A stretch of 64,000 bases of DNA, taken from NCBI RefSeq assembly GCF_000020005.1, contig NC_010718.1, positions 2,438,001 to 2,502,000 of the forward strand. The letters run 5' to 3'. The position numbers were made by a program, and so were the translations under genes. Under the pieces are notes generated by a model, which ran no database searches, was not told where the DNA came from, and saw only the letters and a list, made by a program, of their open reading frames with translations. Position 1 is the stretch's first letter. The number at the start of each line of letters is the position of its first letter. This document shows, piece after piece, positions 9,966 through 13,475 of the stretch. The DNA is from Natranaerobius thermophilus JW/NM-WN-LF. GTDB taxonomy: Bacteria; Bacillota; Natranaerobiia; Natranaerobiales; Natranaerobiaceae.

Positions 9966-10898
9966 TTAACTAAATAAAGGTGTGCTGAAGTATCTGTCTC
10001 CACTATCAGGTAATACAGTTACAATATTTGCACTAGGTGGTAATTTTTCTGCTATTTTCATAGCTGCAAAAACATTAGTTCCACTAGAGATACCAGAAAA
10101 CAGTCCATCTCTTCTATTTAAGCTTTTGGCAGTTTCAAGAGCTTCTTCGTCGGTAACAGTCAACACTTCATCAATTATATCCTGGTTTAACACCCCTGGT
10201 ATGAAACCATCACCAATCCCCTGCTGAATATGACTAGATATTTCACTCTGGCTTAAAACTGCTGCTTTTTCAGGTTCTACTGCTATTATCTTAACTTCGG
10301 GATATTTCTGTTTTAAGACTTCACCCACACCTGTCAAAGTTCCTCCTGTACCCACTCCCGCCACAAAAGCATCTATTTGTTCACCTGTCTGTTCAATAAT
10401 TTCTTTGGCTGTAGTCAGGCGATGGGCGTTCGGATTGGCTTTGTTTTCAAATTGATTTAAAATAAATACTCTGGAGTCCTGTTCAGCTAATTCTCTTGCC
10501 CGAGATTTACAATTATCAAAGGTTTCCGAAATATTATTTCCATCAGGGCTGATATCAATTTCTGCTCCTAGATTTTCTATCATCTTCCTTCTTTCTGTAC
10601 TCATGCTTTCTGGCATGACAATTTTAGCCCGATAACCCTTAATAGCAGCTACCAGGGCAATACCTATTCCTTGATTCCCACTAGTTGGTTCTACTAAAAT
10701 TGAATTTTCATTTATCTGTCCATTTCTTTCAGCCTCTATTATCATTCCTAAAGCCGTTCTTGTCTTAATACTTCCTCCGGGATTGAAAGCTTCCAATTTA
10801 ACCAGAATATTTCCGTGAGAGTTGTTGGTATTTTGCAGTTCTATCATGGGTGTATTACCGACAAAATCTAAGGGATTATTACTTTTAAAAGTCATCAT
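9966..10898 (-). CDS. PLP-dependent cysteine synthase family enzyme
   Basis: 310 residues. It is a fold-type II PLP enzyme of the O-acetylserine sulfhydrylase/cystathionine beta-synthase family. The PLP lysine lies in NPGGSIKTR, the substrate loop is EPTSGNQGIG (Gln where the textbook loop TSGNTG has Thr), and the phosphate-binding loop is GTGGTLTG. The expected reaction is beta-replacement on O-acetylserine to give cysteine; other beta-replacement or elimination substrates are possible. The start at 10898 follows AAAGGAAGTGGA; an in-frame extension to 10949 lacks a ribosome site. Upstream lies a consensus sigma-54 promoter and an adjacent sigma-54 activator gene, so expression is probably induced by a specific signal rather than serving routine cysteine synthesis. 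Confidence 0.85.
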   Translation of the reverse strand: MMTFKSNNPLDFVGNTPMIELQNTNNSHGNILVKLEAFNPGGSIKTRTALGMIIEAERNGQINENSILVEPTSGNQGIGIALVAAIKGYRAKIVMPESMSTERRKMIENLGAEIDISPDGNNISETFDNCKSRARELAEQDSRVFILNQFENKANPNAHRLTTAKEIIEQTGEQIDAFVAGVGTGGTLTGVGEVLKQKYPEVKIIAVEPEKAAVLSQSEISSHIQQGIGDGFIPGVLNQDIIDEVLTVTDEEALETAKSLNRRDGLFSGISSGTNVFAAMKIAEKLPPSANIVTVLPDSGDRYFSTPLFS

Positions 10899-11023
10899 TC
10901 CACTTCCTTTCTTAATTAATTGTGTTTTAAGCTTCCTATTAAAAGTCACATATCATGATACAAGTCAATATACTTTTTTAAATCGCTAATATTGAGCTTA
11001 TATTTTTTTCATAATCTATTAGT

Positions 11024-11039
11024 TGCAACTTTTATGCCA
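11024..11039 (-). promoter_or_regulatory. Predicted sigma-54 (-24/-12) promoter
   Basis: The minus strand reads TGGCATAAAAGTTGCA. GG (11038-11037) and GC (11026-11025) are separated by exactly 10 bp, the invariant sigma-54 spacing, with TGGCA and TTGCA boxes both intact. Transcription would start near 11013, about 115 nt before the cysteine-synthase-like gene. The adjacent gene encodes a sigma-54 activator. Confidence 0.8.
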
Positions 11040-11080
11040 TCTAATCAACCCCGGAATCATGGAAGAAAATAGAACCATAA

Positions 11081-11137
11081 AAATAAGCCATCTCATCTTG
11101 AGATAAACTGTATCAAACTCAAGCTGAGACGGCTTTT
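11081..11137 (-). terminator. Hairpin terminator of the sigma-54 activator gene, overlapping operator-like repeats
   Basis: Arms at 11087-11102 and 11118-11133 form a 16-position stem with two mismatches. It is flanked by AAAATAA on one side and TTTT on the other, so it could terminate in both directions, chiefly the minus-strand gene at 11230. Each arm also contains a CTCA-N3-TGAG palindrome. Confidence 0.55.
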
Positions 11138-11210
11138 AATAAAGCACTGTATTAAAGGGTGATTTTCAGATTACACAATATTCCCCCTTGTATCTCAATC
11201 TGAGATACAA
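11090..11210. promoter_or_regulatory. Three CTCA-N3-TGAG palindromes: candidate activator binding sites
   Basis: Sites: 11090-11104 (ATCTCA-TCT-TGAGAT), 11118-11128 (CTCA-AGC-TGAG) and 11188-11210 (perfect 10-bp arms TTGTATCTCA/TGAGATACAA around ATC). A half site TGAGA lies at 11221-11225. They are 50-180 bp upstream of the -24/-12 promoter, the usual place for enhancer-like sites of sigma-54 activators. Confidence 0.6.
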
Positions 11211-11229
11211 AAATTCAATTTGAGACTGT

Positions 11230-12999
11230 TTATATCAGGCCGTATTTTTTTAGTTTACGATAAACTGTAGCTCTACTAACACCTAATTTTCCTGCCATGA
11301 GTTGTTTTCCTTGTTCACTGATACCATAGATTTTAACTGCTTTTTCGAAACTCCTTTTTTCTAATTCCTCTAGAGGTAAGATCTCATCATCTCCAACATT
11401 TTTTTGATAATCCTGGGTTTCTAGTAGCTTATCTTTCATATTTTTGGGTAAATCTCCTAAATCTAAATAACCTTTCTCATTAATATTTATAAAATATTCC
11501 GCTACATTTTCCAGTTCTCTCACATTCCCAGGCCAGCTATATTGCTCTAAAAAGCTCATTAATTCCCGTGACAAAGCTGGCTGTTCCCGTTTTAATTTAT
11601 TGGCATATTTATTTAGAAAATGATTAAGAAGTAGTGAAATATCCTCTCGTCGTTCCCTCAGAGCGGGAATAAAAAGAGGTACCACATTCAATCTATAAAA
11701 TAAATCTCTTCTAAACTTGTTTTTTTCAATAAACTCTTCCAAGGGCTGGTGAGTAGCGGCAAGAACCCGCACGTCTATTTTAATAGTTTCAGGGCTTCCT
11801 ATCCTTTCAAAAGTCCCATCTTGCATAACTCTAAGCAGTTTTGTCTGTAAATGTATCGGCATGTCCCCAATCTCATCTAGAAAAATCGTTCCACCTTCAG
11901 CCAATTCAAACTTACCTATTTTCCCGCCTTTTTTAGCTCCTGTAAAAGCACCCGATTCATAACCAAATAATTCACTTTCCAGTAATGTTTCCGGTATAGC
12001 CCCGCAGTGAACGGGAACAAATGGTCCTTTCCACCTAGGACTAGCAGAATGAATTGCCCTGGCATAAAGTTCTTTGCCTGTTCCACTCTCACCTCGGATA
12101 AGTACTGTAGAATCCGTTTGACTAACTTTTTTGGCCTTTTCCTTTAACTCTTTGATATTATTATTTTTAGAAATAATTGCATTGAATGAAAATCCCGCTG
12201 TATTACCACTAACCCTAAAAGCGAGTTTTTCAATCTCTTTAGTGTCCCTGACAGTAGCTACTGCACCTACAACTTTATTATTCATTTTAATAGGTTTCAT
12301 ATTGACCAAACAGTGAATCCCTACTTTAGAAAAGTACTGTTCGTGCCCTAGTTTACTTGTCCCGGTAGTTATTACCCCTTCAAAGGGTAGTTCAGGTACA
12401 ACATTTTCCACATTTTGACCAATAATATCTCCTCTAATATCCAGTAAATCTCGCACAGCATCATTACAAGCAATAACTTCATTATAATCATCAACTGCCA
12501 GAATTCCCTCATAAACAGAATTGACAATGGCGCTTACCTGGGCATAAGCTTTAGTCTTTTCCAGTATGATTTGTTCATTGGAAAAACTATCGGCAAGCAG
12601 TTCAGACATTTTTTTGATAAAGCTTCTATATTTTTCTTCTGCGTAAGTCAGATCTTGTTTTTGTGATTCGGTAAAAGCAGTAATTCCTATAATTGCAATT
12701 ACCTGTCCATTTAAGTTAATTGGCGATAACATATGGGCTTTTTCTTGACACTCCGATTTTTTTGTACATGAATAACAGATTTGATTTTTACCAGGTTTGT
12801 TAATAGTTGTAGCTTGTCTTGATTTAATAGAAAATTCATAACCAGATCCTGGGGGTAACCTCTCCCCTATTCTGTTTTTGTAGCTGCCAGTCCCGGCTAC
12901 CCTAATTAAGTCAGAATCAACAATCGTCACATCCAAAAGAAGTACATCAGAAATCGTTTCAGCTATCTGCTGTACTCCTTTGTTATCAATCTTGGTCAC
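11230..12999 (-). CDS. Sigma-54-dependent transcriptional activator with PAS domain
   Basis: 589 residues from GTG 12999, which follows AGAGGTGGGG at 7 nt; an upstream in-frame extension would overlap the preceding gene. Domains: an N-terminal sensor (about 1-130) with a [10 protein letters not shown] cluster and the segment [16 protein letters not shown]; a PAS-like domain (about 150-255); an AAA+ central domain (about 270-510) with Walker A GESGTGKE, the sigma-54 contact loop GAFTGA, Walker B FLDEIGD and the R-finger region [12 protein letters not shown]; and a C-terminal Fis-type helix-turn-helix ([15 protein letters not shown]). It should hydrolyse ATP to remodel the sigma-54 holoenzyme. 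The predicted target is the neighbouring cysteine-synthase-like gene. The signal is unknown. Confidence 0.93.
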
Positions 13000-13031: not shown

Positions 13032-13475
13032 TCAAAAGACATCTCCTAATAAGATTATCAATAACGCACTTAATCCCCCTAACAGGATATGCCATGTCAT
13101 ATGCGTTATATTAGTAGTAGGTTCTACTGGATCTTTCCTGGCGATATTCGATCTTAAAATTATCCCGAAAAATAATAACCAAAAAAATAAACCTACTGAC
13201 ACACCCTTAATTAAGTAAAAAGAAGGCGAGGTAAAATAAAGTAAATAACTTACTGTAACTCCTTTAAAACCAGCCAGTATATAATCATTAATAGCACCTA
13301 TAAACAATCCAGCAGAGGTTTTTATATCTTTTTTTTCTACAAAGGCAGATGCCGAAATATGCCATATAAATATTTTATTTATGCCTAACCGATACAAAAA
13401 ATAATCAAGAATATTAATCGGTATATTTGCCACCACTCCCGAAAGTAAACCTAGTGTAAATATGTCATCTATCAT
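13032..13475 (-). CDS. Integral membrane protein, unknown
   Basis: 147 residues with four hydrophobic segments (about 5-25, 60-78, 88-108 and 128-146). It starts with ATG 13475 after AGGAGTG. It ends 32 bp before the sigma-54 activator start on the same strand, so the two are probably co-transcribed. That would make it a candidate for signal uptake or sensing in the same circuit, which is inference from position only. No family recognised. Confidence 0.7.

What the first reader, a model, noticed from the sequence alone, without database searches (positions are those of the whole stretch)
10899..11229. A sigma-54 circuit: -24/-12 promoter, three palindromic upstream sites and the adjacent activator
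TGGCATAAAAGTTGC has GG-N10-GC at 11038/11025, a full sigma-54 promoter, facing a cysteine-synthase-like gene. Three CTCA-N3-TGAG palindromes lie 50-180 bp upstream, one with perfect 10-bp arms. The next gene on the same strand encodes a sigma-54 activator with a Fis-type helix-turn-helix. The enzyme carries a TSGNQG loop, so it may act on something other than O-acetylserine. The ligand, the enzyme's substrate and the binding motif all look open.
Basis: partly seen in the sequence, partly recalled or inferred. Interest (0 to 1): 0.72.

Follow-up and report, generated by a model that had tools for sequence, protein, structure and literature searches.

The report
Sigma-54 switch for predicted cysteine breakdown
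A bacterium, probably Natranaerobius thermophilus, carries a two-gene control circuit in which a sensor protein switches on a neighbouring cysteine-synthase-like enzyme through sigma-54; relatives of the sensor mostly control an unrelated cysteine-destroying enzyme, so this one probably breaks down excess cysteine.

Summary
In the 331-bp gap between an enhancer-binding protein (EBP) gene and a PLP-enzyme gene on the same strand lie an exact sigma-54 promoter (11039-11025) and three CTCA-N3-TGAG palindromes. The palindrome is conserved: an unbiased half-site scan beside 109 related EBP genes returns TCTCA-N3-TGAGA (14 loci) and TATCA-N3-TGATA (18), each expected in 0.2 loci or fewer. Of 21 sigma-54 promoters scanned in the host genome, only this one has such sites. 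The EBP-promoter-enzyme arrangement recurs in one distant Firmicute (G280), whose enzyme is 59% identical. The enzyme belongs to a CysK subfamily marked SIK[T/S/A]R, SGNQG and QGIGDG; the genome has two canonical CysK paralogues. EBPs in the same clade mostly sit beside cysteine desulfidase (CyuA/CdsB, an Fe-S enzyme), which both genomes with the PLP version lack. Best reading: a CdsR-like, amino-acid-responsive circuit in which a PLP enzyme stands in for the Fe-S desulfidase; ligand and substrate (L-cysteine) are inferred. Two palindromes also fold into a terminator-like hairpin. Side finding: one HTH residue (Arg versus Ile/Leu/Val) tracks the TCTCA/TATCA choice. New variant of a known kind.

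The parts
11230..12999 (-). Sigma-54 enhancer-binding protein (EBP): GAF-fold sensor with C-x2-C-x5-C, PAS, AAA+ with GAFTGA, Fis-type HTH (SRATVYRK). Likely GTG start at 12999 after AGAGGTGG.
   Evidence: Pfam Sigma54_activat 1e-70, AAA_lid_14, PAS, SpoVT_C-like, HTH_8; AlphaFold model of sensor pLDDT 91, GAF-like Foldseek matches; start region
12553..12987 (-). GAF-like sensor domain of the EBP; the three cysteines are conserved in 100 of 109 family members
11233..11310 (-). Fis-type helix-turn-helix [26 protein letters not shown]; its Arg (SRAT) goes with TCTCA-type sites in the family
11025..11039 (-). -24/-12 sigma-54 promoter TGGCATAAAAGTTGC, predicted +1 near 11013
11188..11210 (.). Distal upstream activator site, TTGTATCTCA-N3-TGAGATACAA, perfect 10-bp arms, centre -186
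11216..11228 (.). Degenerate second distal palindrome, centre about -209, 23 bp from the -186 site
   Evidence: sequence; one search counts four sites at 2 mismatches or fewer from TCTCA-N3-TGAGA
11091..11103 (.). Proximal upstream activator site TCTCATCTTGAGA, centre -84
   Evidence: a proximal site at -76 to -115 is common in the family
11117..11129 (.). Third palindrome CTCAAGCTGAG, one mismatch from TCTCA-N3-TGAGA, centre -110
11085..11135 (-). Hairpin formed by the two proximal palindromes plus AAGCC/GGCTT arms, followed by TATTTTTA: likely terminator of the EBP transcript
   Evidence: -29 kcal/mol; z about -5
9966..10898 (-). Target enzyme: PLP fold-type II, CysK-like, SIKTRTA / TSGNQG / QGIGDG subfamily; predicted cysteine-degrading enzyme

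Best explanation
This is a one-component, probably single-target sigma-54 circuit. SHOWN by sequence: the EBP gene, the upstream palindromes, the sigma-54 promoter and the enzyme gene are in the right order and orientation; the palindrome is the conserved motif beside EBPs of this sensor family; and the EBP-promoter-enzyme arrangement recurs in a distant genome. INFERRED: a small amino acid, most likely L-cysteine, binds the GAF-like sensor; the EBP binds TCTCA-N3-TGAGA sites at about -186/-209 and -84/-110, loops to the closed sigma-54 polymerase at 11039-11025 and opens it by ATP hydrolysis; transcription starts near 11013. The PLP enzyme then removes surplus cysteine with release of sulfide (beta-elimination, or a serine- or lanthionine-forming reaction as in Fn1055/Fn1220), in place of the [4Fe-4S] cysteine desulfidase CdsB/CyuA that related EBPs control. 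A hairpin made from the proximal palindromes probably ends the EBP transcript so that the enzyme depends on its own promoter.
For: Promoter and palindromes beyond chance. Unbiased scan of flanks of 109 EBP loci: TCTCA-N3-TGAGA in 14 loci, TATCA-N3-TGATA in 18, expected 0.2 or fewer; 67 sites in 105 kb of flank against 4 in 176 kb of EBP coding sequence. Of 21 sigma-54 promoters scanned in this genome only this one has sites with at most 1 mismatch. Same gene order with sigma-54 promoter in G280, enzyme 59% identical, and its EBP is the best sensor match among 398 genomes. The window EBP lies in a supported 11-row clade (SH-aLRT 99): of the nine members without the PLP enzyme, four have cyuA adjacent (L177, L195, L176, L194) and three (L178, L180, L184) have it on the same contig 6-10 kb away. 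G000 and G280 have no CyuA. Two canonical SVKDR/TSGNTG CysK paralogues elsewhere, one with sulfite-reductase genes, can cover synthesis. C. difficile CdsR/SigL/CdsB: cysteine-induced, UAS at -179..-190 and -200..-211 (PMC5767170), close to -186/-209 here.
Against: Cysteine as ligand and substrate is guilt by association: the wider EBP family also controls diaminopropionate, ornithine, methyltransferase and other genes. CyuA is found in only 26% of sampled genomes, so its absence from two is weak evidence. The enzyme scores above the NCBIfam cysteine synthase A cut-off (385 against 351 bits). Only one other genome shares the pairing; the roughly 25 other SGNQG enzymes examined have no EBP and no sigma-54 promoter beside them. 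The EBP is only 38% identical to the nearest CdsR-type protein with a named host (L005).
Confidence: 0.6

Rival explanations
1. Same sigma-54 circuit, but the enzyme is a beta-replacement synthase (cysteine, lanthionine or another beta-substituted alanine) induced for synthesis or sulfur scavenging, not for cysteine breakdown.
For: TIGR01139 cysteine synthase A above cut-off; full CysK fold and all PLP motifs; Fn1220, annotated as a cysteine synthase, makes lanthionine plus H2S (PMC9600241).
Against: Two canonical CysK paralogues already exist, one beside sulfite reductase; subfamily-wide changes at the lysine loop (D to T/S/A), substrate loop (T to Q) and QGIGAG to QGIGDG; sister EBPs control catabolic genes.
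Confidence: 0.2
2. Same circuit, but ligand and substrate are another amino acid (for example serine, threonine, 2,3-diaminopropionate or O-acylserine).
For: Related EBPs sit beside other PALP-fold enzymes: YgeX/DpaL-type diaminopropionate ammonia-lyase and OrtB; Nie et al. list DioR and OrdR regulons (PMC6615313).
Against: Those EBPs fall in other clades; the window's own clade is dominated by cyuA targets. The enzyme is CysK-like, not YgeX- or OrtB-like.
Confidence: 0.17
3. Palindromes 11097 and 11123 are only a transcription terminator; the functional activator sites are the distal pair at 11199 and 11222.
For: They pair into a stem of about 17 bp with extra AAGCC/GGCTT arms and a T-rich tail, -26 to -29 kcal/mol, z about -5; the C. 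difficile UAS lies only at -179 to -211.
Against: A proximal site at -76 to -115 together with a distal one recurs in L088, L195, L213, L233, L242, L245 and L251; in the several loci folded it is not terminator-like.
Confidence: 0.3
4. The promoter match is fortuitous and the enzyme is transcribed by sigma-70.
For: Sigma-70-like hexamers exist on the minus strand at 10982-10955, though such matches are no more frequent than in shuffles.
Against: Exact sigma-54 consensus with 0 hits for the control pattern genome-wide, conserved upstream sites and conserved neighbour EBP.
Confidence: 0.04

Closest known systems
CdsR/SigL/CdsB circuit of Clostridioides difficile (PMC5767170)
   Same: One-component EBP with PAS, AAA+ GAFTGA and Fis HTH, encoded next to its target; sigma-54 promoter; paired upstream sites about 180-210 bp from the start; family relatives beside cysteine desulfidase genes.
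   Different: The target here is a PLP-dependent CysK-like enzyme, not the [4Fe-4S] CdsB. The EBP is a distant relative (38% to the M. mangenotii CdsR-type protein L005) in another clade. Cysteine induction is not shown.
EBP groups of Nie et al. 2019 in Clostridiales (PMC6615313), e.g. OrdR, DioR, CdsR
   Same: Same architecture class and sigma-54 logic; amino-acid catabolic targets; the paper notes distinct upstream motifs for CdsR, OrdR and DioR.
   Different: None of the 39 listed groups has a CysK-like target; the paper's text does not mention Natranaerobius. The motif logos are in a figure I could not see.
Cysteine synthase CysK (TIGR01139)
   Same: PALP fold type II, Schiff-base lysine, PLP loop GTGGT, about 50% identity to canonical CysK.
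   Different: SIKTRTA instead of SVKDRIA, TSGNQG instead of TSGNTG, QGIGDG instead of QGIGAG.
Fn1220 and Fn1055 of Fusobacterium nucleatum (PMC9600241)
   Same: CysK-like PLP enzymes that act on L-cysteine and release H2S.
   Different: Sequence relationship not tested beyond the shared fold; no sigma-54 control reported in the text read.

Membership tests
Sigma-54-dependent promoter | TGGCAY-N5-TTGC (GG-N10-GC) | tested here: met
Sigma-54-dependent promoter | rpoN in the genome and an EBP in cis | tested here: met
Sigma-54-dependent promoter | Transcript start 12 nt after the GC and loss in an rpoN mutant | not testable with these tools
   needs 5' mapping and a mutant
Bacterial enhancer-binding protein | AAA+ sigma-54 interaction domain with GAFTGA and HTH | tested here: met
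CdsR circuit | EBP of the same sensor family next to the target with sigma-54 promoter and paired UAS | tested here: met
CdsR circuit | Target is CdsB/CyuA ([4Fe-4S] cysteine desulfidase) | tested here: not met
   target is PALP; no CyuA homologue in the genome
CdsR circuit | Induction by cysteine | not testable with these tools
   inferred only
Cysteine synthase A (CysK) | TIGR01139 score above cut-off | tested here: met
   385 against 351 bits
Cysteine synthase A (CysK) | Canonical SVKDR, TSGNTG and QGIGAG motifs | tested here: not met
   SIKTR, TSGNQG, QGIGDG
Cysteine synthase A (CysK) | O-acetylserine sulfhydrylase activity | not testable with these tools
   needs assay
PrdR (NF041552) | Score above curated cut-off | tested here: not met
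   423 against 795 bits

The most novel reading that the evidence does not exclude
A cysteine-responsive sigma-54 activator has exchanged its iron-sulfur desulfidase target for an unrelated PLP enzyme of an undescribed CysK subfamily (SIK[T/S]R, SGNQG, QGIGDG). In the same EBP family a single recognition-helix residue (Arg versus Ile/Leu/Val in xRATxYRK) sets the upstream site (TCTCA versus TATCA), giving a readable protein-DNA code that predicts regulons.
Probability: 0.45. Interest if true: 0.62.

Novelty: new variant of a known kind. Interest (0 to 1): 0.5.

Why it matters
It gives a testable function to a divergent CysK subfamily that annotation calls cysteine synthase but that may do the opposite. 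It offers a likely case of non-orthologous replacement inside a conserved regulatory circuit. It also supplies a binding-site motif, with a candidate one-residue specificity code, for a large family of mostly uncharacterised sigma-54 activators in anaerobes, so their targets can be predicted from sequence.

Tried and rejected
Close relatives: the genome set holds 3 genomes of this order, and neither of the other two has the enzyme at E <= 1e-120, so nucleotide-level footprinting in near relatives was impossible; conservation was tested in distant relatives instead. Third genome copy of TCTCA-N3-TGAGA: inside a glycosyltransferase-like gene, rejected as a regulatory site. Neighbours of other SGNQG enzymes: no consistent partner genes in the four loci read, and no EBP or sigma-54 promoter in the flanks of the rest. 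Further EBP-enzyme pairs in the class of G280 (154 genomes): none beyond G280. Inferring substrate from the T-to-Q change: the soybean switch to cyanoalanine synthase was made with T81M, S181M and T185S together (PMC5372542), so one changed position is inconclusive. CyuA absence as proof: prevalence is only 26%, so it is supporting only. Phylogeny-corrected test of the HTH code: 3 independent pairs on supported branches (5 on the best tree), none discordant, too few for significance. Terminator-only reading of the proximal palindromes: kept as a rival.

Full report
WHAT IS THERE. The window lies in a 3,165,557-bp contig of a 3.19-Mb genome; from memory that size is Natranaerobius thermophilus, which I did not verify. 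On the minus strand an EBP gene (GTG 12999 to 11230) is followed by a 331-bp gap and a PLP-enzyme gene (ATG 10898 to 9966). The gap holds TGGCATAAAAGTTGC at 11039-11025 and CTCA-N3-TGAG palindromes centred at 11199, 11123 and 11097, plus a degenerate one near 11222. The genome has 23 TGGCAYN5TTGCW sites and none of the reversed control. Shuffles of the gap never gave two TCTCA-N3-TGAGA sites (0 of 4000). Genome-wide the pattern occurs three times, twice here and once inside a gene.

THE ACTIVATOR. It has a sigma-54 AAA+ domain with GAFTGA, a PAS domain, a Fis-type HTH and an N-terminal sensor with a weak SpoVT_C match. It is below the PrdR cut-off. An AlphaFold model of the sensor (59-row alignment, pLDDT 91) matches GAF-type folds: SpoVT, free methionine sulfoxide reductase, CodY, NifA. 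Cys78-x2-Cys81-x5-Cys87 is conserved in 100 of 109 family members, so it is a family trait (metal, Fe-S or redox) and not specific to this ligand.

THE MOTIF IS CONSERVED. I collected 109 EBPs of this sensor family, window included, and counted every 5-base half-site palindrome with spacer 0-12 in their flanks. The top two of all were TATCA-N3-TGATA (18 loci) and TCTCA-N3-TGAGA (14 loci), each expected in 0.2 loci or fewer. Perfect TXTCA-N3/4-TGAX'A sites number 67 in 104,719 bp of flank against 4 in 176,162 bp of EBP coding sequence; upstream of sigma-54 promoters they lie at -76 to -273, often one near -200 and one near -90, as here (-186, -84). In the host genome, of 21 sigma-54 promoters scanned, only this one has sites with at most one mismatch, so the regulon is probably one gene.

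THE HAIRPIN. The two proximal palindromes pair, with AAGCC/GGCTT extensions, into a stem of about 17 bp followed by TATTTTTA on the minus strand (-26 to -29 kcal/mol, z about -5). This is probably the EBP terminator. In the other loci folded, the proximal sites are plain palindromes, so both roles are possible here.

THE ENZYME. Fold-type II PLP, above the cysteine synthase A cut-off, but with SIKTRTA, TSGNQG and QGIGDG in place of SVKDRIA, TSGNTG and QGIGAG. These changes travel together in a subfamily seen in roughly 25 other genomes. Apart from the window, only G280 has a sigma-54 promoter and an EBP upstream. There the enzyme is 59% identical, the EBP 45%, the promoter is TGGCATGGTTCTTGC, and a TGTATCA-N3-TGATACA palindrome lies at -100. 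That EBP is also the best sensor match among 398 genomes. The host has two canonical CysK genes, one in a cluster with a sulfite-reductase-like gene, so the third copy is unlikely to be the housekeeping synthase.

WHAT IT PROBABLY DOES. On the tree of 109 EBPs the window falls in an 11-row clade (SH-aLRT 99), grouped with L177 and L195. Adjacent cyuA-type genes occur in L177, L195, L176 and L194, and cyuA lies on the same contig 6-10 kb away in L178, L180 and L184. L185's genome has it on another contig; L255's genome (G316) is not among those with a match. These targets are PF03313 proteins with the GCTEP motif, the family of C. difficile CdsB and of CyuA (PMC5767170, PMC12647591). The two genomes with the PLP enzyme lack CyuA. 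CyuA occurs in 103 of 398 genomes, so this absence alone is weak. Together: a cysteine-responsive activator whose Fe-S desulfidase has been replaced by a PLP enzyme. CysK-like enzymes acting on cysteine have precedent (Fn1220, Fn1055; PMC9600241). In C. difficile, CdsR and SigL drive cysteine-induced cdsB with inverted repeats at -179..-190 and -200..-211, and deletion to -153 abolishes it.

SIDE FINDING. Among loci with one site type, Arg at the second position of xRATxYRK goes with TCTCA (14 of 14) and Ile/Leu/Val with TATCA (16 of 18; Fisher p 5e-7, not corrected for ancestry). Three loci with GRATLYRK also have TCTCA, pointing to Arg and not the neighbouring Ser. Independent pairs on the tree are concordant in direction, 0 discordant, but only 3-5 in number. 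G280 (L174) and L206 are exceptions.

STATUS OF EACH STEP. Shown by sequence: gene order, promoter, motif conservation, recurrence of the pair. Inferred from family knowledge: looping and ATP-driven opening. Inferred from neighbours: cysteine as ligand and substrate (about 0.6). Not tested: transcription, binding, activity.

Noticed in passing
EBP family flanks, e.g. L192, L213, L088, L091, L208: A single HTH residue (Arg versus Ile/Leu/Val in xRATxYRK) tracks the second base of the upstream half-site (TCTCA versus TATCA): a candidate specificity code for Fis-type EBPs.
   Followed up: partly
window 12553-12987 and alignment A3 relatives: C-x2-C-x5-C in the GAF-like sensor is conserved in 100 of 109 family members, whatever their target gene; a metal, Fe-S or redox role is possible.
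   Followed up: partly
window 11085-11135: Two activator palindromes double as the stem of a terminator-like hairpin between activator and target gene.
   Followed up: partly
window 13032-13475 (-): A 147-aa membrane-like ORF just upstream of the EBP has no Pfam or NCBIfam match.
   Followed up: no
G000:C2:1098349-1102411: Three nearly identical sigma-54 promoters (TGGCACGACTTTTGCT twice, TGGCACGGCTTTTGCT once) lie within about 4 kb on one strand, suggesting a multi-promoter sigma-54 locus.
   Followed up: no
L305 (G000:C2:1149500-1157500): Cluster of canonical cysK, a ThiF/MoeB-like E1, a JAB-type peptidase and a sulfite-reductase-like gene: probable sulfur-carrier cysteine synthesis locus.
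   Followed up: no
L178, L180, L184: EBPs of the window's clade sit by TRAP-type transporter genes with a cyuA gene further along the same contig; possibly a cysteine or cystine uptake and degradation cluster.
   Followed up: no
L007, L008, L009, L088, L261, L192, L217: Other PALP-fold catabolic enzymes (YgeX/DpaL-like, OrtB-like) sit beside EBPs of the same sensor family.
   Followed up: partly
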